Shown here piece after piece: positions 1 to 60,583 of a stretch of DNA of 60,583 nucleotides. Below the pieces are notes generated by a model, which searched no databases, was not told where the DNA came from, and worked only from the letters and a program-made list of their open reading frames with translations. Every line of letters begins with the position of its first letter. Position 1 is the first letter of the stretch. Source of the DNA: a virus; the IMG/VR virus record IMGVR_UViG_3300030451_001154, positions 1 to 60,583 of that record; one strand, given 5' to 3'. A program made the translations under genes and the position numbers.

Positions 1-1
1 C

Positions 2-231
2 ATAGGTCCAAACACTTTAAAAAGAGTCCACATGATTGAGAACGCTACAAGTGGATCACAAAATATAATTATATCACAAGGTTCTGGTGCAAATGTAACC
101 ATAGGACCTGGCGATACAAAGGTTGTTTACCTTGATGGTGCAGGTTCTGGTGCGGCTGTTGTAGATGCTTTTGTGGATTTAGATTTATCTGGTGGTTCTG
201 TAAATGTGAGCACAGTCAAAACTAATTCTGG
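2..231. repeat. Left copy of near-identical terminal overlap
   Basis: Bases 2-231 match 60354-60583 with substitutions at 13, 82, 106, 109, 121, 124 and 154 (plus base 1). Every difference is at a third codon position and none changes the protein. This is the overlap expected of a circular or circularly permuted genome, but assembled from two close variants rather than one exact sequence. Confidence 0.9.
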
Positions 232-775: not shown

Positions 776-2059
776 GTGGCGATACCAAGTTCTGGACAAT
801 CTTTATCTTTCTCTGCACTTAGAACTGAATTTGTTGGTGGGTCTAGTGCAATTAGTTTAGGTGACCTTTACAGAGGTGGTTCTAATATTTTAAAAAAAGC
901 TGGAGATAATCAAGCTACAAATCTTGCAGCTAATGTTGCCACTTCTGGTGCATTAGATGTTAGTGATTATTACGATCAAGCAAAAGGATTTACTTTCACT
1001 TACTCTACTACTTTTTTGAGTGGATCAAGTGGAACAGATCAAAATGTATCAACATTGTTTGGTGATGATTACGATGTTAATTATCCAAAGAATGTTGTTA
1101 TACCATCAGGTATAACACTAGGATCTAACAACACAGCAGAATATGGTTTAGAAGTAGATTCTGGTGGAGCTGGTACAATAACAATTACTAATAACGGAAA
1201 CATTATTGGAGCGGGTGGAGCTGGTGGATCAGCTGGAGCCGCAGGTACTGGTGGAGCGGGTGGAGCTGGAGGCAATGGATCAGCTGGAGGCGATGCCGTA
1301 AAAGCCGCAGTTGCATGTACCATTATAAATAACGGAAGTATCTTAGCTGGAGGCGGTGGTGGAGCCGCTGGTGGTGGAGGTGGACTAGGTGGAGCTCTTC
1401 AACAACAGCAACAAACCACTGGTCAACAAGGTCCGACTTATTATGCTGGTGGATATGCTACACAACAATATATTTGGCAAGGAATTTTTCAACAAGGTTT
1501 TGGAAACCCTATAGGTGCTCAAGCTAACTGGGGTCCTGGAAATCCAGATGGTATAGTTGGGACAACAGCATCATCTCATCCTCGTTATATTCCAGGTTTG
1601 GCTGGACAGACTTCATTTACATTTGGACAGTATACTTATTATAGAGGTGGCTATAGAGGTGCTAACCAATTTAATACTTTCAACACCCTCTATAATATAT
1701 ATAGACAATTTCCTCAATCACAACAAACTCAAGTGGCTGGACATGCAGGAGCCGCAGGTGGAGCTGGTGGATTAGGAAGAGGATTTAATAATCAACCTGG
1801 TGGAGACTCTGGTGCATCTGGAGGTTCTGGAACAACTGGTCAAGCTGGAAACGGTGGAAACGGTGGAAACGGAGGCGATGGTGGTGGCTATGGTCAAGCT
1901 GGTTCATCTGGTCAAGCTGGTCAAGCGGGAACAAATTCATCTACTAATGGGTCTGCCGCAGGTAGTGCAGGTAGTGCGGGAGCGGCAGGTAATTATATCG
2001 AAGGAATTTCAAACGTAACTTTAACAAATAACGGCACAGTCGCAGGAGGCACAGAATAA
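776..2059 (+). CDS. Glycine-rich tail fibre / adhesin
   Basis: The 427 aa protein starts at GTG three bases after the upstream stop. Residues 1-70 (GQSLSFSALRTEF...ISLGDLYRGG) resemble the attachment segment of many marine phage fibres. About residues 100-200 alternate short beta motifs (ITNNGNIIGAG, IINNGSILAG) with runs of GGAGG. Residues 335-410 are again almost pure Gly/Ala/Ser/Asn. Such Gly-x-x repeats form polyglycine-II bundles in other phage adhesins. A Gln/Tyr-rich middle (about 205-325) may be the variable tip. It lies directly after the S74 fibre, so it is probably its tip protein or a second receptor binder (inference). Confidence 0.75.
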   Translation: MAIPSSGQSLSFSALRTEFVGGSSAISLGDLYRGGSNILKKAGDNQATNLAANVATSGALDVSDYYDQAKGFTFTYSTTFLSGSSGTDQNVSTLFGDDYDVNYPKNVVIPSGITLGSNNTAEYGLEVDSGGAGTITITNNGNIIGAGGAGGSAGAAGTGGAGGAGGNGSAGGDAVKAAVACTIINNGSILAGGGGGAAGGGGGLGGALQQQQQTTGQQGPTYYAGGYATQQYIWQGIFQQGFGNPIGAQANWGPGNPDGIVGTTASSHPRYIPGLAGQTSFTFGQYTYYRGGYRGANQFNTFNTLYNIYRQFPQSQQTQVAGHAGAAGGAGGLGRGFNNQPGGDSGASGGSGTTGQAGNGGNGGNGGDGGGYGQAGSSGQAGQAGTNSSTNGSAAGSAGSAGAAGNYIEGISNVTLTNNGTVAGGTE

Positions 2060-4082: not shown

Positions 4083-4688
4083 ATGAACGTGCAACTTAAA
4101 GACTGTTTTCCAACACCACTATATAGTTCGTATTTAGATATAGACACAAATATATATATTAAAAAGGTGTATGAAGAAGAAAGTAAATCTAAAGGTAGAC
4201 GAAGAAGCAACACGGGTTGGCAGTCTCTTGATTTAGATGTAAAACAATACAAAGAATTATTTGACAAGATAAATCCTCACATAATTGAATATTACAAAAT
4301 ATTTAATTGTTCGGCAGAATTACACATGTCTAATGCTTGGTTTAATATAAATAGGTACAAAGATATGAACTCATCACATCATCATGCCTCTTCAGCCGTA
4401 TGTGGAATTTTATATTTTAAAGTGCCAGACAATAGTGGAGACATTGGTTTTGAGAATCCTAATCCTTTTATTGGGTCTACTTGGATTCAAGGCACAACAG
4501 ACGATACATTAAATAAATATAATGCAGAAACTATTTATTATAAATCAGAAGAGAAATTATTAATTTTATTTCCAGGTTATTTAAGACATGTGGTAAGACC
4601 AAACATGTCAAATGAAGATAGAATATCTATGGCTTTTAACACAAATGTTTTTTTCAAAGGAGACTTTAATGAACCTAGAAAACTATAA
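4083..4688 (+). CDS. 2OG-Fe(II) oxygenase-like 4 (2OG-FeII_Oxy_5 type, modified metal site)
   Basis: 201 aa. It shares the layout of oxygenase 3: DCFPTPLYSSY at the start, SSHHHASSAVCGILYF (His99-101) at the first iron site, LFPGYLRHVVRP with His169, and Arg180 (EDRISMAFNTNVFF). The carboxylate of a normal HxD triad is not obvious because it is replaced by a His run. The enzyme may therefore be altered or may belong to a subfamily with a different metal set. Its last 20 nt overlap the next gene. Confidence 0.75.
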   Translation: MNVQLKDCFPTPLYSSYLDIDTNIYIKKVYEEESKSKGRRRSNTGWQSLDLDVKQYKELFDKINPHIIEYYKIFNCSAELHMSNAWFNINRYKDMNSSHHHASSAVCGILYFKVPDNSGDIGFENPNPFIGSTWIQGTTDDTLNKYNAETIYYKSEEKLLILFPGYLRHVVRPNMSNEDRISMAFNTNVFFKGDFNEPRKL

Positions 4689-5319
4689 AAAAATAGTTCA
4701 AGAAAGATTCCCAATAGATCCAAAGAATTTACCTTACTATATTGTTTATGATGATTTTTTACCTGCTCACGAGTTTGGTAATTTAAAAAGTTACTTGTCA
4801 AGTGATTTTCCTTGGGGAATTGCAAATAAATTAAATTATGATGATCAAAACCCATACTTAGTAAGAAAAATATATGACGTTGAACACCCAGCTAGACATG
4901 AGTGGACATCTCATATTGATACAGAGCCTTTTGTTTATATAACACAAAAAATAGGCATGGTTGCTATGTTAAGATTAAAAGCAAATATGTATTTTAATAG
5001 TCACGTTAAGGATATACATTATCCTCACATTGATTATCAATTTCCACATCAAGGAGCTTTGTTTTATTTAGATGACTGTGACGCTCCTACTTACATGTCA
5101 GATGGAGTGGGTATTGAAAGTAAACAAAATAGACTTTTACTTTTTAACGCATCAACGGCTCATTCTAGTTCAGCACCAACTGATAAAAGCTATAGACAAA
5201 CTATTAACATTAATTATTTTGGAGGAGGTATTCGTAATGATTACTTAAGATTAATTAAAGATCCTACTGTAATATCTGAACATGTTCCTTTTACGATTAA
5301 GCCAGATGGGAGAACATAA
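4669..5319 (+). CDS. 2OG-Fe(II) oxygenase-like 5
   Basis: 216 aa, starting at the ATG at 4669 (MNLENYKKIVQERF) with AAAGGAGA just upstream. A longer in-frame start at 4612 would lie deep in the previous gene. Iron-site residues are HYPHIDYQF (His120, Asp122) and STAHSSSAP (His165), with Arg176 in SYRQTININYFGGG. The middle TYMSDGVGIESKQNRLLLFNA fits the jelly-roll. This type is often annotated in cyanophages. The substrate is unknown. Confidence 0.8.
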   Translation: MNLENYKKIVQERFPIDPKNLPYYIVYDDFLPAHEFGNLKSYLSSDFPWGIANKLNYDDQNPYLVRKIYDVEHPARHEWTSHIDTEPFVYITQKIGMVAMLRLKANMYFNSHVKDIHYPHIDYQFPHQGALFYLDDCDAPTYMSDGVGIESKQNRLLLFNASTAHSSSAPTDKSYRQTININYFGGGIRNDYLRLIKDPTVISEHVPFTIKPDGRT

Positions 5320-5882
5320 TGCAGTTTCAAACATATCAATCAAAACTAATAGAAGATAATCATCAAGAGTTTTTAACAGAATGCGAAAGAGCAGTAGCTA
5401 AATTAGATGATAACTTTCCAGGTGAAGACAAAACGTGGAGTTATTACAAATATAATTTTTTCGTTGTCACTGCGGGAAGTAAACTGTTCTATAATTTATT
5501 TAAAGAAATGCAATGGTGTATTAGAAATTTCTGCCAAACTAATGAGCCTCTTTGGTGGGGATGTTGGTTAAATTACCATGAGTCAGACAAAGTATTAGAC
5601 TGGCATAATCATGGTTCAGATTATCATGGATATGTATCTATTGAACCAAAAAACACTGTTACTGAGTTTAAACAATGGAAAGTTAATAATAAAATAGGAC
5701 AAATCTACATAGGAGAAGGTGGACATGAACACAGAGTTGTTGTTAATGAAAACTTTGACACACCTAGAATTACTCTTGGTCTTGATATTTATAAAAACTT
5801 AAATTTTTTTGAAGACCTAAAAGAAGAAGATGGCGTTGTTACAACCAAAGTATTAGGTAATATGTGTTACATACCATGTTAG
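5319..5882 (+). CDS. 2OG-Fe(II) oxygenase-like / cupin-fold protein 6
   Basis: 187 aa, overlapping the previous stop by one base. LDWHNHGSDYHGYVSIEP (His96, His98), GGHEHRVVV (His136/His138) and Arg150 (TPRITLGLDIY) match the order of oxygenase sites, but the first site reads HxH, not HxD. It could be a divergent oxygenase or a non-2OG cupin. Its place inside the oxygenase run favours the former. Confidence 0.6.
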   Translation: MQFQTYQSKLIEDNHQEFLTECERAVAKLDDNFPGEDKTWSYYKYNFFVVTAGSKLFYNLFKEMQWCIRNFCQTNEPLWWGCWLNYHESDKVLDWHNHGSDYHGYVSIEPKNTVTEFKQWKVNNKIGQIYIGEGGHEHRVVVNENFDTPRITLGLDIYKNLNFFEDLKEEDGVVTTKVLGNMCYIPC

Positions 5883-30377: not shown

Positions 30378-30589
30378 GTAGTCACCTTGTGTGGTCTCAT
30401 TGCTCTCACCTTTAGCTCATTTTCCATTTTACCGATTGTGTTTGTTACATATCTTCTTTCTTTAGATACTGGATGTGTATAAATATAAGTATCAGAGTGT
30501 GGATGATCTTCGTCCAGTTTATTTCTGTAAGTATACATACTTCTAACAAACAACTCTATTTCTTTTTGTGATATTTTAAGATGTGCCAT
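30374..30589 (-). CDS. Small early protein of unknown function
   Basis: 71 aa. MAHLKISQKEIELFVRSMYT with GAGAGGAG upstream of the ATG. It overlaps the end of dcm and couples to the next gene by ATGA. Mixed helix and strand, no Cys or catalytic pattern. Family unknown. Confidence 0.55.
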   Translation of the reverse strand: MAHLKISQKEIELFVRSMYTYRNKLDEDHPHSDTYIYTHPVSKERRYVTNTIGKMENELKVRAMRPHKVTT

Positions 30590-31646
30590 TAAATTCTCCT
30601 CTCAAAGCTAGTCCTAAATACATTGCATTTTGGGGACATATTGCATTCCCCAAGCCAATTAATCGTTGTTTTCTGTCTTTGTCCAATTCTGTGGATATCC
30701 CATTAGGAACTCCGTGAAGTTGGCGTTCAACTTCCCACCATGATAATTGTTCTTCAACACTTCTCTCGGTAACGATTTGTCTCTGCTCTCTTTCCACGTT
30801 GGATTGTATGATGCGTCCTTCCAATCTCTCGCAAGTGGTGTTGGATAATTCCAGGTTTTCATTCTTGGTGGTCTTAGCGTCACTCCGTCCATCATTGCTT
30901 GAGCTTCTGCTTCCGTCATTTCTCCATTCTCCACTTTCTTTCTGAAGATCATTGTTTGTCCCTCCGAGGCATGACCGAAACCTTTGGTCGTTGGAGTTGG
31001 ATACAAACTCATTGTCATTGGATCTAACTGCTCTCTCAGATTGCTCGGTTTCTTCCGTCCCTTTCTGTGACCTTCTTGCATTTTCTTCGTTGCTTCTGCA
31101 CTCCTTGGGGGAAGATGATCCATCGTGTTCGGTGTTGCGTAAAGATTTACAGATGATCCAGAGTCTGTCCCTTTTGTGCCATGCTCCGATTGATGAAGAC
31201 GGAAATACAAATGTCCTCGTACAGTAGTCGATGCTTTCCATTTTAAAGAGAACCTCGTCCAATCCCAACGAGAGATGTCCATAAACATTTTCGTAAATGA
31301 CAAAAGAGGGTCTTGTTTGTTCAACAATTCTAAAGATGTACGGGAAGATGTGGCGAGGGTCTTCTTGCCCTCTGCGATTTCCCGCAACGCTGAACGGTTG
31401 ACACGGATATCCAGAGGTGAGGATATCTGGTTTTTTTGGAATAAATCTTTTTGGGTCATTTGCGATCTCCTTTACATCGTTAAAAATTGGTACACCTGGA
31501 AAATTCTTTTTTAATACTTTGTGACACCATTGTTCGGTATCACAAAATAAAATTGGTTTGGATAGTTTTGCACCTTCATCTAAGCCAAGTGCAAATCCTC
31601 CGATGCCACTACATAAATCAACATGAGTTTTATTTAAATGTTTCAT
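30576..31646 (-). CDS. dcm: DNA cytosine-5 methyltransferase
   Basis: 356 aa from the ATG at 31646 (MKHLNKTHVDLCSG), chosen because AAAAGGAG lies 5 nt upstream; an in-frame ATG is 18 nt earlier. Motif I DLCSGIGGFALGL, motif IV SGYPCQPFSVAGNRRG with the catalytic Cys, motif VI YENV, motif VIII KRDRLWI and the C-terminal RLIGLGNAICPQ complete the enzyme. Residues about 175-300 are a low-complexity Ser/Asn/Glu/Arg stretch where the second gene overlaps. It probably shields phage DNA from restriction; the target site is unknown. Confidence 0.9.
   Translation of the reverse strand: MKHLNKTHVDLCSGIGGFALGLDEGAKLSKPILFCDTEQWCHKVLKKNFPGVPIFNDVKEIANDPKRFIPKKPDILTSGYPCQPFSVAGNRRGQEDPRHIFPYIFRIVEQTRPSFVIYENVYGHLSLGLDEVLFKMESIDYCTRTFVFPSSSIGAWHKRDRLWIICKSLRNTEHDGSSSPKECRSNEENARRSQKGTEETEQSERAVRSNDNEFVSNSNDQRFRSCLGGTNNDLQKESGEWRNDGSRSSSNDGRSDAKTTKNENLELSNTTCERLEGRIIQSNVEREQRQIVTERSVEEQLSWWEVERQLHGVPNGISTELDKDRKQRLIGLGNAICPQNAMYLGLALRGEFNGTS
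30659..31459 (-). CDS. Dcm-companion protein nested inside dcm in another frame
   Basis: 266 aa, wholly inside dcm on the same strand. AAAGGAG lies 7 nt before its ATG. The protein has the features of the phage companion of cytosine methyltransferases: SRTSLELLNKQDPLLSFTKM, RFSLKWKASTTVRGHLYFRL, repeated PTP motifs (LYATPNTMDHLPPRS, LYPTPTTKG, NYPTPLARDWKDASY) and the ending LNANFTEFLMGYPQNWT. Both frames therefore look selected. Its function is unknown; it is perhaps a specificity or partner subunit of the methylase. Similarity is from memory of the family. Confidence 0.7.
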   Translation of the reverse strand: MTQKDLFQKNQISSPLDIRVNRSALREIAEGKKTLATSSRTSLELLNKQDPLLSFTKMFMDISRWDWTRFSLKWKASTTVRGHLYFRLHQSEHGTKGTDSGSSVNLYATPNTMDHLPPRSAEATKKMQEGHRKGRKKPSNLREQLDPMTMSLYPTPTTKGFGHASEGQTMIFRKKVENGEMTEAEAQAMMDGVTLRPPRMKTWNYPTPLARDWKDASYNPTWKESRDKSLPREVLKNNYHGGKLNANFTEFLMGYPQNWTKTENND

Positions 31647-31902
31647 TTTGCTCCTTTTCTTCATCTATTTGTCTTGAGTACAAAGTTATTCCAAAGTCAT
31701 AACCTTCTTGATAATAGTGATGAGATTGAGTGGTATCTCTTATACCATGTATCAATCCATCAACTACACCATCTCTGAACGCCTTTAAAATTTCGTTAAC
31801 TGATAGTTGCCCTACAGAACCATGTCTATCTATAAAACAACTAGGTATTTTTTCAAAATATCCATTTGGAATATTAGTTTTAAATTTTATTTTCTTTGTC
31901 AT
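31630..31902 (-). CDS. Small early protein of unknown function
   Basis: 90 aa. MTKKIKFKTNIPNGYFEKIP, then a helix LSVNEILKAFRDGVVDGLIHG and a His/Tyr-rich end (SHHYYQEGYDFGITLY). It overlaps the dcm start by 17 nt, so it is translationally coupled. Family not recognised. Confidence 0.55.
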   Translation of the reverse strand: MTKKIKFKTNIPNGYFEKIPSCFIDRHGSVGQLSVNEILKAFRDGVVDGLIHGIRDTTQSHHYYQEGYDFGITLYSRQIDEEKEQNETFK

Positions 31903-33288: not shown

Positions 33289-33711
33289 ATGAAAGAAAAA
33301 AACTTTTTTTTGAACATAAAAAAACAACTTCCAAAAGGTTGTTTTATCCAGAAAATAGAAAATAAATTTAATTCTGGTTTTCCAGATTTAATAATAATAA
33401 CTGATAAATTGCCCTTGTTTATTGAGTTAAAATCACCAATAAAAGGAAATAGGATAACTGTGGAAAAGTCCCAGATATCAATACATTTGAGAATACAAGC
33501 CAATAATTACATTTCTTTTTTCTTGGTTCGTGACCCTTTGACCTCTGATCTATTTTTATTTGACGGTGGTAAACTCTGCACTTTTATCTCTGTCCACCTC
33601 TGCACTCCGTCTCTGTCCGCCTCCCTTCCGGGTTACCTGGATCACGGTGATCTGGTGCGGGTGTTGCAAACTGCGAATCGGGAAGCACGAATCAGATCGC
33701 AAAGAAAATGA
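33289..33711 (+). CDS. VRR-NUC domain nuclease
   Basis: 140 aa. FNSGFPDLIIITDKLPLFIELKSP holds the Asp and ExK of the PD-(D/E)XK core, and EKSQISIHLRIQANNYISFFLV the Q..H helix of VRR-NUC nucleases. The family cuts branched DNA such as Holliday junctions or flaps. The nuclease fold ends near residue 95; the last 45 residues come from a GC-rich stretch and show no fold signal. No obvious ribosome site. It is a lone rightward gene, ended by the hairpin at 33695. Confidence 0.8.
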   Translation: MKEKNFFLNIKKQLPKGCFIQKIENKFNSGFPDLIIITDKLPLFIELKSPIKGNRITVEKSQISIHLRIQANNYISFFLVRDPLTSDLFLFDGGKLCTFISVHLCTPSLSASLPGYLDHGDLVRVLQTANREARIRSQRK

Positions 33712-33746
33712 AATGGTCGCTCTGCGATTCTTTGCGATCTTTATTT
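33695..33746 (+). terminator. Hairpin A, terminator of the VRR-NUC gene
   Basis: GATCGCAAAGAA (33695-33706) pairs perfectly with TTCTTTGCGATC (33728-33739) over a 21-nt loop; TTTATTT follows. The left arm overlaps the stop region of the nuclease gene. It shares the words GCGATTCTTT and TTGCGATC with hairpins C and D. Confidence 0.65.
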
Positions 33747-33764
33747 ACTGGGAAAAAAAACTGG

Positions 33765-33793
33765 AAAAAAATCCAGAGGCTACGCCTCTGGAT
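33765..33793 (-). terminator. Terminator of the leftward 112 aa gene
   Basis: On the minus strand ATCCAGAGGC, TAG-containing 3-nt loop and GCCTCTGGAT form a perfect 10-bp stem followed by seven T. The stop codon of the gene lies at the loop, so translation runs into the terminator. Confidence 0.85.
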
Positions 33794-34118
33794 CTGGGTC
33801 ATCGATGAGATGTATGTCATCTCTGTATAAAATCTTGCCTGTCTGCAAGTCGTTTGGTACATTCTTGAGCTTGACCAGGTCAACGCCACCCTTCGGCAAC
33901 AAGACCCTTTTGATAAGAACCCCATCAACATAAAAACGAAACTCTCGATCTCCGTTGGTGCGTTCTCTCATTGTGGTTGAGTGGTTCAAAAAGTGATGCG
34001 AGTTTTTGGCGGACGATCCGACATAAACCGAAACATCTCCTGTCTGCTTAACCCCGTAACTTTTTTGACCTTTGTAAATACACGCCGTGACTTTGTTCCA
34101 AATTGGATAAGATGCCAT
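33780..34118 (-). CDS. Early protein in a single-gene unit
   Basis: 112 aa, AAAGGAG before the ATG. Beta-rich: VTACIYKGQKSYGVKQTGDV, VYVGSSAKNSHHFLNHSTTM, FRFYVDGVLIKRVLLPKGG. It has its own consensus promoter (34153) and terminator (33765), the layout of a moron gene. No family recognised; it could be a host-takeover or exclusion factor (inference). Confidence 0.65.
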   Translation of the reverse strand: MASYPIWNKVTACIYKGQKSYGVKQTGDVSVYVGSSAKNSHHFLNHSTTMRERTNGDREFRFYVDGVLIKRVLLPKGGVDLVKLKNVPNDLQTGKILYRDDIHLIDDPDPEA

Positions 34119-34152
34119 TTTTATTTCTCCTTTGATAAATGGTTATGATTCC

Positions 34153-34180
34153 AGTATAAGAATTTCTGGGACTATGTCAA
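34153..34180 (-). promoter_or_regulatory. Promoter of the 112 aa gene
   Basis: Minus strand: TTGACA (34175-34180), 16 nt, TATACT (34153-34158). Identical hexamers and spacing to the promoter at 34445. Confidence 0.75.
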
Positions 34181-34191
34181 CTGGAAAATTT

Positions 34192-34255
34192 AACAATGTG
34201 CAGAGTTGCAATTAATATAAAACCAATTCGAACCTTTGCAACTCTGCACATTGTT
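34192..34255. repeat. Hairpin E: perfect 20-bp inverted repeat
   Basis: AACAATGTGCAGAGTTGCAA (34192-34211) pairs base for base with 34236-34255 over a 24-nt loop. There is no strong T-run on either side. It stands between a leftward promoter and GC island 1, so it may insulate units or act as DNA rather than RNA structure. Confidence 0.8.
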
Positions 34256-34319
34256 TGCTTCCCGCCTCCTTCCAGGAGCTTCTGGGCCCGGGCGTTCCGG
34301 GACGGAAGGCTCGGGAGCT
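34256..34319. other. GC island 1
   Basis: 34261-34320 has 43 G/C of 60 in an AT-rich genome. It contains CCGCCTCC, also found at 33618 and 34957, and CCTTCC..GGAAGG and CCCGGG..CCGGG pairings. No gene. It lies exactly between hairpins E and C. Confidence 0.6.
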
Positions 34320-34386
34320 AAGAATCGCAAGGGTCACAACTATCTAAAAAACAAACAAAACTTTGTGACCCTTGCGATTCTTTTTT
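34320..34386 (+). terminator. Hairpin C: perfect 20-bp stem with T-run
   Basis: AAGAATCGCAAGGGTCACAA (34320-34339) pairs perfectly with 34363-34382 over a 23-nt loop, ending in TTTTTT at 34381-34386. It is rightward terminator-like but far longer than usual. No rightward gene ends here. Confidence 0.7.
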
Positions 34387-34437
34387 ACGGACACCGGGAC
34401 GCTGCAGCTGCCTTCGGCAGCGGGGGTTCTGGAGAAA
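34387..34437. other. GC island 2
   Basis: About 72% G/C. It contains a tight hairpin GCTGCC-TTC-GGCAGC (34407-34421). It joins hairpin C to the promoter at 34445. No gene. Confidence 0.6.
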
Positions 34438-34444
34438 AAAGTGG

Positions 34445-34472
34445 TTGACAGATTCTTATAAAATCTTATACT
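34445..34472 (+). promoter_or_regulatory. Promoter of the two-gene unit 34496-34864
   Basis: TTGACA (34445-34450), 16 nt, TATACT (34467-34472). It shows that translation must start downstream, at 34496. Confidence 0.75.
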
Positions 34473-34495
34473 GGAAGAAATTAAAAGGAGAAGCT

Positions 34496-34657
34496 ATGAA
34501 GCAAATACATAAAATAAATAGAAAAGGAAAACGAGCATCTTTCAAAGCGAAAGGTGTACTATTAAAATTTAAAAAAGTCAAATCTGGATTTTCTGCTCCA
34601 AGAGTAACTTGGCAGAAATTTGAGAAGTATGTAACCAAACACCAAAGGGAGGCGTAA
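34496..34657 (+). CDS. Small very basic protein
   Basis: 53 aa from the ATG at 34496, with AAAAGGAG 6 nt upstream; an open frame further 5' runs through the promoter and is ignored. MKQIHKINRKGKRASFKAKG is rich in Lys/Arg, then SGFSAPRVTWQKFEKYVTKH. It may bind nucleic acid. It is coupled to a zinc-binding gene that starts immediately after its stop. Confidence 0.6.
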   Translation: MKQIHKINRKGKRASFKAKGVLLKFKKVKSGFSAPRVTWQKFEKYVTKHQREA

Positions 34658-34864
34658 ATGCAATGTGTTATATGTAAAGGCGAAATAGAAAAGCAGTACA
34701 CCGAAGAGGGCGTAATGTTTTGGGATCAAGGAAACAATGCACAACCAATTGATGATGGGCGTTGTTGTAATGATTGCAACCGAAAGGTTGTGATTCCAGC
34801 ACGAATGGCAGAGATCAAGTTAGCTCAAGTCATGAAACATCATAAGCCTAAGTCTGGTTCGTAA
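34658..34864 (+). CDS. Zinc-binding (DksA/zinc-ribbon-like) small protein
   Basis: 68 aa, GGGAGG before the ATG. CVIC at residues 3-6 and CCNDC at 36-40 make a four-Cys zinc site around YTEEGVMFWDQGNNAQPIDD, followed by a basic helix. It could bind RNA polymerase or DNA. It pairs with the basic gene upstream in one promoter-driven unit. Confidence 0.65.
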   Translation: MQCVICKGEIEKQYTEEGVMFWDQGNNAQPIDDGRCCNDCNRKVVIPARMAEIKLAQVMKHHKPKSGS

Positions 34865-34882
34865 CCGAACCAGACATCTCTG

Positions 34883-34950
34883 AAAAAAGAATCGCAGATC
34901 GCAATTAATTAATCACAACAACTGATCCTTGCGATCTGCGATTCTTTTTT
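34883..34950. repeat. Hairpin D: perfect 22-bp inverted repeat
   Basis: 34883-34904 pairs perfectly with 34929-34950 over a 24-nt loop. The outer bases are six A and six T, so it can end transcription both ways. The right arm contains TTGCGATCTGCGATTC, sharing words with hairpins A and C. It closes the unit 34496-34864. Confidence 0.85.
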
Positions 34951-35003
34951 GCAGACCGCCTCCAGACCCAGGTACCGGGGCCCAGCAACCAGGGTGCGGA
35001 GAG
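34951..35003. other. GC island 3
   Basis: 34951-35000 has 36 G/C of 50. It begins with GCAGACCGCCTCCAGACCC, sharing CCGCCTCC with island 1. No gene in 34951-35055. Confidence 0.6.
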
Positions 35004-35055
35004 ATTGTAACCGATTTAGCTAAACAAAAAAAGTTTAAAATAATTAATTTTTTAT

Positions 35056-35084
35056 TTGACTATAAGATAATATGGGATTATATT
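35056..35084 (+). promoter_or_regulatory. Promoter of the 72 aa gene
   Basis: TTGACT (35056-35061), 17 nt, TATATT (35079-35084), 34 nt before the ATG at 35119. Confidence 0.65.
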
Positions 35085-35118
35085 GAATTGTGATTAATTA
35101 AATGAAAGGATTCTAATC

Positions 35119-35337
35119 ATGCCAAATAAAACTTTAAAAGATTATTTTAAACTTAACGACAGATATATGGAATATCAATCAAAGCATTTTGTTACGATTG
35201 GTAAACTCATTTTAATCAACGAGCAAATAAAGTCTCTTCTTATTAAACGAGATGAGCTTGAGAAGGTCGAGAAGGTCTTGAAGGAAAAATGCAAGACAGA
35301 ACCTATGTTTGCTCAAGATAAGACTGACGAGTCTTAA
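35119..35337 (+). CDS. Small helical protein
   Basis: 72 aa with AAAGGA upstream. Almost wholly helical: LKDYFKLNDRYMEYQSKHFV, then the coiled coil LINEQIKSLLIKRDELEKVE. Just downstream lie five copies of a palindrome, so it may encode a factor acting there, but no DNA-binding motif is evident. Family unknown. Confidence 0.6.
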   Translation: MPNKTLKDYFKLNDRYMEYQSKHFVTIGKLILINEQIKSLLIKRDELEKVEKVLKEKCKTEPMFAQDKTDES

Positions 35338-35354
35338 AACGCCATTAAACATGG

Positions 35355-35445
35355 TGTCAATAACTTGACACCATGTCAAATAATTGACTGTCAAAAGATT
35401 GACAAGTGTCAATCTTTTGACGCTCTGTGTGTCAAAAAAATGACA
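35355..35445. promoter_or_regulatory. Five tandem TGTCAA-N4-TTGACA palindromes
   Basis: Copies at 35355-35370, 35374-35389, 35389-35404, 35407-35422 and 35430-35445. Copies 1 and 3 are perfect; copies 2, 4 and 5 each have one changed base. Spacing of starts is 19, 15, 18 and 23. Neighbouring copies also pair into larger stems (15 bp at 35390-35421). It is probably the binding array of a dimeric repressor or initiator. Confidence 0.8.
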
Positions 35446-35451
35446 TGCCTA

Positions 35452-35531
35452 AAAATGAATTGAGAAACGCAAATGAATATAACGTGAGCGAAGCGAACAC
35501 AGAAAAAGCATTGCGTTTCTCAATTCATTTT
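35452..35531. repeat. Hairpin H: perfect 21-bp inverted repeat
   Basis: 35452-35472 pairs perfectly with 35511-35531 over a 38-nt loop that holds GTGAGCGAAGCGAAC. The right arm ends in TTTT. It follows the operator array and precedes the terminase leader. Confidence 0.75.
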
Positions 35532-35605
35532 ACCCCCACCCCCACGAGGGTTACTTACACATAAACAGAATGAATATGAAAAAACAAAAAGGGGGGAGGG
35601 GTAAA
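35529..35605 (+). promoter_or_regulatory. Stem that can hide the ribosome site of the terminase operon
   Basis: TTTACCCCCACCCCC (35529-35543) can pair with GGGGGGAGGGGTAAA (35591-35605), 8 plus 5 base pairs with two mismatches. The right arm is the ribosome site of the 50 aa gene at 35608. Confidence 0.5.
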
Positions 35606-35607
35606 TT

Positions 35608-35760
35608 ATGGGGTACGGTGTTACTGTTGCAACCTATATATGCTTGATTGATAAATTTATTCAAATATATTATTGTTGGGATATGGATGATAAAGAATGG
35701 ATATATCTTGTAATAGGAATATGGGGTTACTCGTTCCTTGCAGGATTTTACTTTGGTTAG
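35608..35760 (+). CDS. Small membrane protein before terL
   Basis: 50 aa (MGYGVTVATYICLIDKFIQI...). Two hydrophobic segments, TVATYICLIDKFIQIYY and WIYLVIGIWGYSFLAGFYFG, flank an acidic turn. The purine-rich GGGGGAGGGG lies 8 nt before the ATG. Its stop touches the terL start, so it is coupled to terL. Function unknown; a small holin-like or coupling role is possible. Confidence 0.6.
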   Translation: MGYGVTVATYICLIDKFIQIYYCWDMDDKEWIYLVIGIWGYSFLAGFYFG

Positions 35761-37239
35761 ATGAACTTAGATACACTTCCTAAAGAGGTGTTACATGAAC
35801 TGTTTCTGCTTGAACAACAGAAAAAGAAATTGGACACTCGTGAAAGAGCACAAAAAGATTTTTTGGCTTACGCTCTTCATGTGTATGAAAATTTTATTGT
35901 TGGGCGACATCACAAGATTATTGCAAAGAGACTTGAAGCGATAGCCGAGGGTAACTTAAAACGTCTCATTATCAATATGCCACCTCGACACTCAAAGTCA
36001 GAACTTGCTTCGTATCTCATGCCTTCGTGGTTCCTGGGTCGTAATCCAAAATTAAAAATCATACAGGCTACCATGAACACGGAACTTGCGGTAAGATTCG
36101 GTAGAAAGGTTCGTGATCTTATAGCCGATCCCATCTACGGTGAAATTTTTCCCAACACGGACTTGAAACAGGATAGCCAAGCAGCTGGAAGATGGGAAAC
36201 CAGTGTTGGTGGGGAATACTTTGCAGCTGGGGTGGGTGCAGCAATGACTGGTCGTGGTGCAGATCTTTTAATCATAGATGATCCGCACTCGGAACAAGAT
36301 GCACTGTCCACGGTTGCTTATGACAATACTTACGAGTGGTATACATCTGGCCCAAGACAAAGATTACAACCTGGGGGAACCATCATCATTGTGCAAACAA
36401 GATGGTCAAAGAAAGATCTAACTGGTCGTTTAATTAATGCAATGGCAAAAGATACTATGGCAGATCAATGGGAGATTATTGAGTTCCCAGCCATACTACC
36501 AAACGATAAAATCTTGTGGCCCGAATTTTGGAACAAGGACGAGTTACTAAAAGTTAAAGCGTCACTGGCTCCCATGAAATGGAATGCACAATGGCAACAG
36601 AATCCAACATCAGAAGAAACTGCCATGATCAAAAGAGAGTGGTGGCAACCGTGGGAAGAGGATGAAGTTCCAAAGTTAGATTATATAATTCAAAGTTACG
36701 ATACTGCTTATTCTAAAAAAGAGACTGCTGACTATTCTGCCATTACAACTTGGGGTGTGTTTGAACCAAAAGCGAATGGAGAGCAACATTTAATTATGCT
36801 TGACGCTAAGAAAGGGCGTTGGAATTTTCCAGAATTAAAAGAAATAGCGTTAGAAGAAAACGAATATTGGGAACCAGACATGATGCTCATTGAAGCAAAA
36901 GCAAGTGGACAACCTTTGGCTGATGAACTAAGATTGCAAAATCTACCAGTTTTGACATTTAGTCCTGGCAGACGCAAAGGGGGTAACTTGGACAAAACGA
37001 CAAGGATGCACATTGTATCACCTATTTTCGAAGGAGGTAAAGTATGGTATCCTAGTGGAGAGAAGTTTGCAGAAGATGTAATAGAAGAAGTTGCATCTTT
37101 TCCAAATGGAGATCATGATGACTATTGTGATAGTATGACAATGGCTCTCATGAGATTTAGACAAGGTGGTTTTATATCACTACAAGGTGAAGACGAAGGG
37201 GAAGATTGGTTTCCCCGAACAAGAAGGGAATATTACTAA
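35761..37239 (+). CDS. terL: Terminase large subunit
   Basis: 492 aa. ATPase: Walker A-like NMPPRHSKSE (72-81), Walker B LLIIDDPHSEQDA (169-181), coupling motif VQTRWSKKDL. Nuclease: SYDTAYSKKETADYSA, LIEAKASG and HDDYCDSMTMAL supply the acidic RNase H-fold residues. It pumps DNA into the capsid and cuts the concatemer. It begins on the base after the small membrane gene's stop and overlaps the next ATG (TAATG). Confidence 0.95.
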   Translation: MNLDTLPKEVLHELFLLEQQKKKLDTRERAQKDFLAYALHVYENFIVGRHHKIIAKRLEAIAEGNLKRLIINMPPRHSKSELASYLMPSWFLGRNPKLKIIQATMNTELAVRFGRKVRDLIADPIYGEIFPNTDLKQDSQAAGRWETSVGGEYFAAGVGAAMTGRGADLLIIDDPHSEQDALSTVAYDNTYEWYTSGPRQRLQPGGTIIIVQTRWSKKDLTGRLINAMAKDTMADQWEIIEFPAILPNDKILWPEFWNKDELLKVKASLAPMKWNAQWQQNPTSEETAMIKREWWQPWEEDEVPKLDYIIQSYDTAYSKKETADYSAITTWGVFEPKANGEQHLIMLDAKKGRWNFPELKEIALEENEYWEPDMMLIEAKASGQPLADELRLQNLPVLTFSPGRRKGGNLDKTTRMHIVSPIFEGGKVWYPSGEKFAEDVIEEVASFPNGDHDDYCDSMTMALMRFRQGGFISLQGEDEGEDWFPRTRREYY

Positions 37240-60111: not shown

Positions 60112-60583
60112 TGGCAACATATGTTAACAATTTAAGATTAAAAGAAATAGCAACTGGTGATGAATCAGGAACATGGGGTACTTCAACCAATACAAATCTT
60201 GAATTAATTGGTGAAGCACTAGGTTTTGGTACGGAAGCCATAACCACAAATGCTGATACACATACTACGACTGTAGCAGATGGATCGGCAGATGAGGGCA
60301 GAGCCATGTATATTAAATATACTGGTACATTAGATTCTGCATGTACAATAACTATAGGTCCAAATACTTTAAAAAGAGTCCACATGATTGAGAACGCTAC
60401 AAGTGGATCACAAAATATAATTATATCACAAGGCTCTGGTGCAAATGTAACCATAGGTCCAGGCGATACAAAAGTCGTTTACCTTGATGGTGCAGGTTCT
60501 GGTGCAGCTGTTGTAGATGCTTTTGTGGATTTAGATTTATCTGGTGGTTCTGTAAATGTGAGCACAGTCAAAACTAATTCTGG
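60111..60583 (+). CDS. Tail fibre, N-terminal part (partial)
   Basis: The ATG at 60111 overlaps the previous stop (TAATG). MATYVNNLRLKEIATGDESG and TWGTSTNTNLELIGEALGFG are a typical marine phage fibre attachment head, followed by the beta region. The frame is open to the window end and continues in frame at base 2. The C-terminal S74 domain is at about 480-772. Confidence 0.85.
   Translation, partial: MATYVNNLRLKEIATGDESGTWGTSTNTNLELIGEALGFGTEAITTNADTHTTTVADGSADEGRAMYIKYTGTLDSACTITIGPNTLKRVHMIENATSGSQNIIISQGSGANVTIGPGDTKVVYLDGAGSGAAVVDAFVDLDLSGGSVNVSTVKTNS
60354..60583. repeat. Right copy of near-identical terminal overlap
   Basis: Matches bases 2-231 with only third-position differences. 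See the left copy. Confidence 0.9.

What the first reader, a model, noticed from the sequence alone, without database searches (positions are those of the whole stretch)
33690..35003. Cassettes of very long perfect hairpins and 72% GC islands
Seen: perfect stems of 12, 20, 20 and 22 bp (33695, 34192, 34320, 34883) with loops of 21-24 nt, each next to a GC-rich island. Islands share CCGCCTCC; hairpins A, C and D share TTGCGAT and GCGATTCTTT. Surrounding DNA is AT-rich. Ordinary terminators have shorter stems and 3-8 nt loops. Inference: a repeated element family, either mobile hairpin cassettes that carry small genes or a structured RNA system.
Basis: partly seen in the sequence, partly recalled or inferred. 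Interest (0 to 1): 0.75.

Follow-up and report, generated by a model that had tools for sequence, protein, structure and literature searches.

The report
Orientation-locked hairpin spacers in marine phages
Between a junction-cutting nuclease gene and the DNA-packaging gene of a group of ocean phages lies a changeable run of small genes separated by long, near-perfect hairpins; the best-defined kind always points the same way, and they most likely insulate the genes from each other's transcription and serve as joints where the genes are swapped.

Summary
Every perfect inverted repeat of 13 bp or more in the 60.6-kb window lies at 33694-35531. The window is an uncultured relative of pelagiphages HTVC027P and HTVC023P (TerL 54-58% identical). 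The hairpins lie between a VRR-Nuc-like, Holliday-junction-resolvase-type nuclease gene and terL.

Hairpin A belongs to a defined family ("type I"): a perfect 9-15 bp stem around a conserved loop with two covarying mini-hairpins. The 46 units carry 146 two-sided and 2 one-sided pair changes. A scan of 2.9 million viral contigs found type I units only next to VRR-Nuc/TerL. They match the VRR-Nuc orientation in 66/66 loci and the TerL orientation in 58/58. None of 18 word matches in 84,980 cellular genomes is a hairpin.

So this is not a free mobile element but a locus-specific, orientation-locked spacer array inside a gene-shuffling hotspot. My best reading is transcription insulators facing the late operon that also act as recombination joints; one chimeric unit supports the joint role. 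Whether RNA or DNA is the working form is unproved. GC islands are weakly associated; one is the coding end of VRR-Nuc. Closest known: promoter-stem-loop shuffling cassettes of T4-like phages.

The parts
33289..33711 (+). VRR-Nuc-like nuclease gene (140 aa), left border of the hairpin zone; its last ~110 nt are the first 'GC island'
   Evidence: phrog_2165 'DNA helicase' 1.1e-7 and phrog_5702 'Holliday junction resolvase' 8e-4; family profile hits PDB 4qbo 'Nuclease' E 0.0016 and Hjc 4tkd 0.005; Pfam VRR_NUC only at 0.037 in 2 of 7 homologues, none for the window protein; conserved E...G-x-x-D...ELK...Q residues
33694..33740 (+). hairpin A, type I unit: 13-bp stem, loop AATGAAATGGTCGCTCTGCGA; the TGA stop of the nuclease gene lies in the loop
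   Evidence: (CM R1 64.9 bits, E 5.1e-18)
33780..34118 (-). leftward small gene, 112 aa, unknown function (cluster c12)
33758..33790 (-). tight GC-rich hairpin with T-run: leftward intrinsic terminator of the 112-aa gene
   Evidence: ATCCAGAGGC, 3-nt loop, TTTTTTCCAG
34153..34180 (-). leftward sigma70-type promoter TTGACA-16-TATACT
   Evidence: 11 of 12
34192..34255 (.). hairpin B: 20-bp perfect stem, 24-nt loop
   Evidence: paired G to C / C to G double change in relative L008
34256..34319 (.). non-coding GC island between B and C (70% GC; most GC-rich 50-mer of the window); cumulative GC-skew turning point at 34273
   Evidence: 34182-34443 folds with z = -9.7, much of it from hairpins B and C
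34320..34382 (+). hairpin C: 20-bp perfect stem, 23-nt loop, followed by T-run on the + side
34445..34472 (+). rightward sigma70-type promoter TTGACA-16-TATACT, mirror of the leftward one
   Evidence: inverted repeat I1
34496..34657 (+). small gene, 53 aa; present in the window and L007, absent from L006 and L008
34658..34864 (+). small gene, 68 aa (cluster c6); homologues are in the opposite orientation in L029 and L039
   Evidence: 54% and 44% identity over 59 aa
34883..34950 (.). hairpin D: 22-bp perfect stem, 24-nt loop, A-run and T-run in the stem ends
34951..35010 (.). GC island after D (65%)
35056..35084 (+). rightward promoter TTGACT-17-TATATT
   Evidence: 10 of 12
35119..35337 (+). 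small gene, 72 aa
35349..35421 (.). two tight hairpins (12 and 14 bp, 4-nt loops)
35452..35531 (.). hairpin E, terL-proximal: 21-bp stem, 38-nt loop; a hairpin at this place, shortly before GGGGTTACT/GGGTTACT, recurs in most relatives read
35761..37239 (+). terL, right border of the zone
   Evidence: phrog_38 4.8e-106

Best explanation
The region is a hypervariable zone of single-gene transcription units between a VRR-Nuc-like nuclease gene and terL, with long hairpins at most gaps. I think the type I hairpins, and probably C, D and E, act mainly as transcription insulators facing the late operon. They would stop rightward RNA polymerase coming from VRR-Nuc, from cassette genes or as antisense, so that cassettes do not disturb each other and do not switch on terL early. 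Because they are repeated and palindromic, they also serve as crossover points for gaining, losing and inverting cassettes, and DNA-polymerase template switching keeps their arms perfect. Shown: location, fixed orientation of type I units, covariation, cassette shuffling, one chimeric unit. Inferred: termination activity, time of action, template switching.
For: All 39 high-scoring type I matches in TerL-oriented loci face terL (a few more lie near the threshold). Orientation equals that of VRR-Nuc in 66/66 loci and TerL in 58/58, while flanking gene orientations vary (-- 26, -+ 22, ++ 18, +- 9). T-runs of 4 or more follow type I units on the + side in 16/28 and never on the - side; ordinary tight hairpins in the same loci show the reverse (34 on -, 8 on +, of 69), matching the mostly leftward genes. 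The first hairpin overlaps the VRR-Nuc stop codon in 32 of 57 loci, as 3'-end terminators often do. Stems: 146 two-sided vs 2 one-sided changes, the pattern expected from template switching (PMC8794818). L238 has the 5' arm of unit 1 and the 3' arm of unit 2 of L234-like phages, with about 95 bp missing. Gene families c6 and c4 are inverted, and c16 lies on different sides of VRR-Nuc, between relatives.
Against: T-runs of type I units are short (mean 3.3 T in 8, and 12 of 28 lack a run of 4). Other long-loop hairpins show no direction (10 vs 13). Many hairpins, e.g. B and C, sit between divergent promoters where neither neighbour needs a terminator. Leftward genes already have tight terminators of their own. 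A terminator does not need a conserved loop with covarying mini-hairpins. No expression data were available. Many zones in more distant relatives are 2-3.5 kb long with 0-2 such hairpins, so hairpins are not essential to a zone. The single chimera could be a metagenome assembly error.
Confidence: 0.45

Rival explanations
1. The hairpins are DNA-level cassette-boundary sites: extruded as cruciforms or single-stranded hairpins, they are recognised or cut (for instance by the adjacent VRR-Nuc-like protein, a Holliday-junction-resolvase-type fold), and the break or junction drives cassette exchange.
For: Units lie only beside VRR-Nuc (66/69 loci, the other 3 being cut off near the unit). Stand-alone VRR-Nuc proteins cleave four-way junctions (PMC4103454). 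Almost no G-U or one-sided changes. The + strand loop A[C/T]GNA[G/A]T has the form of GNA-triloop DNA mini-hairpins (own knowledge). Chimera L238. Local GC rise even inside the coding end of VRR-Nuc, codon third positions 46% vs 29%, only in zone-bearing genomes, as GC-biased conversion would give.
Against: VRR-Nuc is also present in genomes without cassettes or hairpins (L064, L071). Inverted cassettes with unchanged site orientation do not fit a simple site-specific recombinase. No recombinase was identified. T-run asymmetry is unexplained.
Confidence: 0.25
2. The zone is a replication origin or packaging (pac/cos) region, and the hairpins are initiator, primase or terminase recognition structures with fixed polarity.
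For: Zone lies between terS and terL; fixed polarity; cumulative GC skew turns in the B-C island (34273); conserved GGGGTTACT and G-tract block between the last hairpin and terL.
Against: Skew turns wherever transcription diverges. Hairpin number and position vary widely, and relatives without hairpins keep a terL-proximal block (L064, L071), so the hairpins are not essential for replication or packaging.
Confidence: 0.12
3. The units are a structured RNA family acting in trans or in mRNA (for example RNase III processing or protein-binding sites).
For: Strong covariation and a conserved loop; RNA folds with z about -4 to -6.
Against: Many units lie between a leftward promoter and the next gene's terminator, so outside the inferred transcripts; G-U pairs are nearly absent; the alternative inner helix that RNA energies favour in some units is broken in 14 of 46; no Rfam match.
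Confidence: 0.1
4. The units are a non-autonomous mobile element, as in mitochondrial GC clusters.
For: Multiple copies per genome, sometimes with identical stems (L039, L035, L034).
Against: Found at one locus only, in one orientation. Stems tend to be shared by position rather than by genome; within-genome similarity only slightly above shuffles (0.589 vs 0.542, 81 of 2000 shuffles reach it).
Confidence: 0.05

Closest known systems
PeSL promoter-stem-loop shuffling cassettes of T4-like phages (Arbiol 2010, Comeau 2014, cited in PMC4503421)
   Same: Intergenic stem-loops beside promoters in hypervariable small-gene regions, linked to modular shuffling
   Different: Here stems are perfect and long with 16-40 nt loops, type I loops hold two covarying mini-hairpins, their orientation is locked to terL whatever the gene direction, and promoter and hairpin are not one composite motif. 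Original papers not held, so the PeSL definition is partly from memory
Extended start-associated sequences (ESAS) of cluster K mycobacteriophages (PMC3203893)
   Same: Repeated inverted repeats with variable spacer, mostly in one orientation, phage-group specific, arm consensus differs between subclusters
   Different: ESAS arms are imperfect, do not support base pairing, and sit within a few nt of start codons; here arms pair perfectly and sit between transcription units
Mitochondrial GC clusters / double-hairpin elements (PMC4478555)
   Same: GC-rich palindromic units, shuffling and merging of units
   Different: Those are dispersed, mobile elements; here one locus, one orientation
Intrinsic (Rho-independent) terminators
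   Same: Stem plus T-run, first unit overlaps a stop codon
   Different: Very long loops with conserved sequence, weak T-runs, also present between divergent promoters
Integron cassette arrays with attC hairpins (own knowledge)
   Same: Single-gene cassettes separated by same-orientation hairpin sites next to a nuclease/recombinase-type gene
   Different: No tyrosine recombinase looked for or seen; perfect rather than bulged hairpins; cassettes occur in both orientations

Membership tests
Intrinsic terminator | stable stem followed by a U-tract in the direction of transcription | tested here: inconclusive
   type I: T-run of 4 or more on + side 16/28, - side 0/28; other long-loop hairpins 10 vs 13 of 47
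Intrinsic terminator | located at 3' ends of transcription units | tested here: inconclusive
   first hairpin overlaps VRR-Nuc stop codon in 32/57 loci, but 22 of 87 distinct hairpins were scored between divergent genes (gene calls approximate)
PeSL cassette | composite early promoter plus stem-loop motif repeated between shuffled genes | tested here: inconclusive
   promoters lie near C (62 nt) and D (about 105 nt), but spacing is variable and GC islands intervene; original papers not held
ESAS | 17-bp imperfect inverted repeats adjacent to a start-associated sequence at start codons | tested here: not met
   hairpins are not at start codons, arms perfect and covarying; definition from PMC3203893
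Mobile GC-cluster / hairpin element | dispersed copies at unrelated loci | tested here: not met
   CM search of whole records finds strong units only between VRR-Nuc and TerL; 69 loci all consistent with that interval
Integron array | tyrosine recombinase of the IntI type | not tested
   the window was not fully annotated for recombinases; the bordering gene is VRR-Nuc-like
Integron array | attC core sites | not tested
   not searched
Rfam RNA families | match to a curated covariance model | tested here: not met
   no match at gathering score in the window
VRR-Nuc / Holliday junction resolvase fold (bordering gene) | sequence relationship to solved or curated members | tested here: inconclusive
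   weak but consistent: PDB 4qbo 0.0016, Hjc 4tkd 0.005; phrog_5702 8e-4; Pfam VRR_NUC only 0.037 in 2 of 7 homologues
VRR-Nuc / Holliday junction resolvase fold (bordering gene) | cleavage of four-way junctions | not testable with these tools
   needs a biochemical assay

The most novel reading that the evidence does not exclude
A phage gene-cassette exchange system: T-shaped DNA hairpins of fixed polarity mark cassette boundaries and are processed by the adjacent VRR-Nuc-like junction nuclease, which drives cassette turnover and local GC rise, with template switching restoring perfect arms after each crossover.
Probability: 0.18. Interest if true: 0.85.

Novelty: new variant of a known kind. 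Interest (0 to 1): 0.56.

Why it matters
Relatives of these phages infect SAR11, among the most abundant bacteria in the ocean, and little is known about how such phages swap the small genes probably used for host takeover. This locus gives a defined hotspot with borders, empty alleles, a searchable covariance model and a possible recombinant intermediate. It also offers natural material for testing how perfect hairpins are kept perfect during evolution (two-sided changes without one-sided intermediates).

Tried and rejected
Rfam: no match. DNA similarity of the region to isolate phages: none. The 14-base loop word alone was too short and returned many chance hits; a 19-letter version was specific. 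Enrichment of GC-rich palindromic hexamers in the islands: not found (33 vs 35.6 shuffled). GC island as a constant companion of hairpins: only marginal. Within-genome homogenisation of stems: weak. Hairpins as a condition for cassettes: no, several zones have few or none (interval length vs hairpin count r = 0.21). Alternative inner helix (columns 14-19 with 24-29): 90% paired, with 2 of its 6 pairs departing only by unpaired cells, against 100% for the two-mini-hairpin model. N4 virion-RNA-polymerase promoters were considered because of the GNA-type loops; rejected from memory because those hairpins have 5-7 bp stems and 3-nt loops; no RNA polymerase appeared among the ten large proteins scanned. 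Type I units in isolates HTVC027P, HTVC023P, DSL-LC04 and 023Pt_psg01: none. Published transcriptome paper of HTVC027P: no mention of hairpins, promoters or terminators.

Full report
What is there. The window holds five long perfect hairpins with loops of 21-38 nt (A-E) and two tight ones, all at 33694-35531. No other perfect inverted repeat of 13 bp or more occurs in the 60,583 bases, and shuffled sequence gives essentially none.

Setting. TerL and the nearest isolates (HTVC027P, HTVC023P; 54-58% TerL identity) place the phage near the HTVC023P-type pelagiphages. The zone is bordered on the left by a 140-aa VRR-Nuc-like gene and on the right by terL. Two near-identical consensus promoters, 34153-34180(-) and 34445-34472(+), point outwards from the B-island-C core, and a third promoter follows D and its island. 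Leftward genes have their own tight terminators. The cumulative GC skew turns at 34273, inside the B-C island. This fits divergent transcription and does not by itself show an origin.

Recurrence. Eighty TerL relatives were fetched. In most of the closer ones (TerL about 89-99% identical, plus a few near 86%), long hairpins recur in the same interval with different stems and loops. A conserved loop defines type I units: AAYGRARTGG-TYGC(2-4 nt)GCRA inside a 9-15 bp perfect stem. Instances of the loop in viral loci fall into two groups, stems of 9-15 bp or of 0-2 bp; the latter are mostly chance word hits, with one wobble-containing unit (L018) and one chimera (L238) as explained exceptions. Among 46 aligned units, 98.1% of pairs are standard, 146 cells change on both sides and 2 on one side only; no shuffle and no slid register comes near this. 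The units were collected by requiring at least 8 paired bases, so the percentage paired is partly by construction, but the gap between 2 and 9 bp shows that few imperfect units were excluded. The two mini-hairpins are supported by a C-G/T-A exchange (32 vs 14, no exceptions) and a second one (44 vs 2); the alternative inner helix is worse. Sequences are related, so these counts are not independent events. In position 1 the T-A form often supplies the TGA stop codon of VRR-Nuc.

Not mobile. A degenerate scan of 2.9 million viral contigs found 51 stretches. After joining all scans, 69 loci carry type I units; 66 contain VRR-Nuc, and the remaining three are cut off near the unit. Orientation agrees with VRR-Nuc in 66/66 and with TerL in 58/58. 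Some loci overlap in contigs, so independent genomes are fewer. Whole-record searches (up to 77.7 kb) show strong units only in this interval. Among 84,980 cellular genomes, the 18 word matches are not hairpins. Genomes in which VRR-Nuc and TerL are only about 204-228 bp apart have no hairpins.

Cassettes. Between VRR-Nuc and terL the small genes differ and move: the c6 family is rightward in the window and leftward in L029 and L039; c4 occurs in both orientations (weak similarity, about 25%); c16 lies inside the zone in L012 and left of VRR-Nuc in L027. Hairpins occur in all gene contexts (approximate gene calls). In more distant relatives zones of 2-3.5 kb have 0-2 such hairpins, so the hairpins are a trait of part of the lineage, not a requirement.

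Mechanism. Type I units carry T-runs of 4 or more only on the terL-facing side (16/28 vs 0/28), opposite to the tight hairpins of the same loci, and the first hairpin overlaps the VRR-Nuc stop codon in 32 of 57 loci. This favours a role against rightward transcription, i.e. insulation of cassettes and of the late operon. The T-runs are short, and the other long-loop hairpins have no direction, so the step is inferred and my confidence is moderate. Recombination: L234, L116 and L235 have two adjacent units with different stems and near-identical loops; L238 has one unit made of the first unit's left arm and the second's right arm, with the segment between missing. This is what a crossover in the loop would leave; an assembly error cannot be excluded. 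In the closest relatives stem B differs by a paired double change (L008). Two-sided changes without intermediates are the signature proposed for template switching (PMC8794818). The GC rise also affects the coding end of VRR-Nuc (third codon positions 46% vs 29% in 54 zone-bearing sequences, 27% vs 28% in 9 others), which would fit GC-biased conversion near recombination joints; this is inference.

Comparison with known things. It works most like the promoter-stem-loop shuffling cassettes of T4-like phages, and in its one-sided orientation like ESAS of cluster K mycobacteriophages (PMC3203893), but membership in the first could not be settled and the second was tested and not met. It is not a mobile GC cluster. 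I rate it a new variant of a known kind, with a minority chance that it is a dedicated cassette-exchange system involving the bordering junction nuclease.

Noticed in passing
window 30659-31459 (-), overlapping 30576-31664 (-): Two overlapping ORFs on the same strand in different frames both match DNA methyltransferase families (phrog_1008 1.6e-23; phrog_363 5.9e-56), over some 800 bp; possible out-of-frame overlapping methyltransferase genes.
   Followed up: partly
L029, about -300 to -150 before TerL; L014, L034 same place: The terL-proximal hairpin can be a large multibranched structure; in L029 a 22-bp outer stem encloses three further hairpins, cloverleaf-like, directly before GGGGTTACT.
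   Followed up: no
window about 35540-35640 and the same block in relatives: Conserved block before terL: GGGGTTACT, a G- or C-tract, GGTGTTACT, then TTGATAAATTCATT..TATATTATCG. The tract is GGGGGGAGGGG in some relatives and CCCCCACCCCCC in others, as if inverted; possible cos/pac site or late promoter.
   Followed up: partly
window 33572-33690; L026, L028, L029, L031: The VRR-Nuc C-terminal coding region of many zone-bearing phages has a roughly 8-aa insertion and raised GC; in some relatives this coding tail itself holds a 13-14 bp perfect hairpin, reminiscent of palindromic elements inserted in genes.
   Followed up: partly
L056-L085 (several): More distant relatives have repeated TTAACATGTTAA-type palindromes in the same interval instead of the long hairpins.
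   Followed up: no
L212 (HTVC027P) 4100-5340; L215 5285-6222, 7679-7790: GC islands, largely outside annotated genes, with AGCTTG/GCTTGC repeats and repeated GGGCCCACCCACCCC lie between terS and terL in distant isolates too, without long hairpins.
   Followed up: no
window 1-231 and 60353-60583: The contig ends overlap by 231 bp at 96.5% identity, not exactly; either an imperfect terminal repeat or a repeat within a virion protein gene.
   Followed up: no
window 1207-1990: Glycine-rich 9-bp tandem repeats (TGGAGCGGG and similar) in a structural-type ORF.
   Followed up: no
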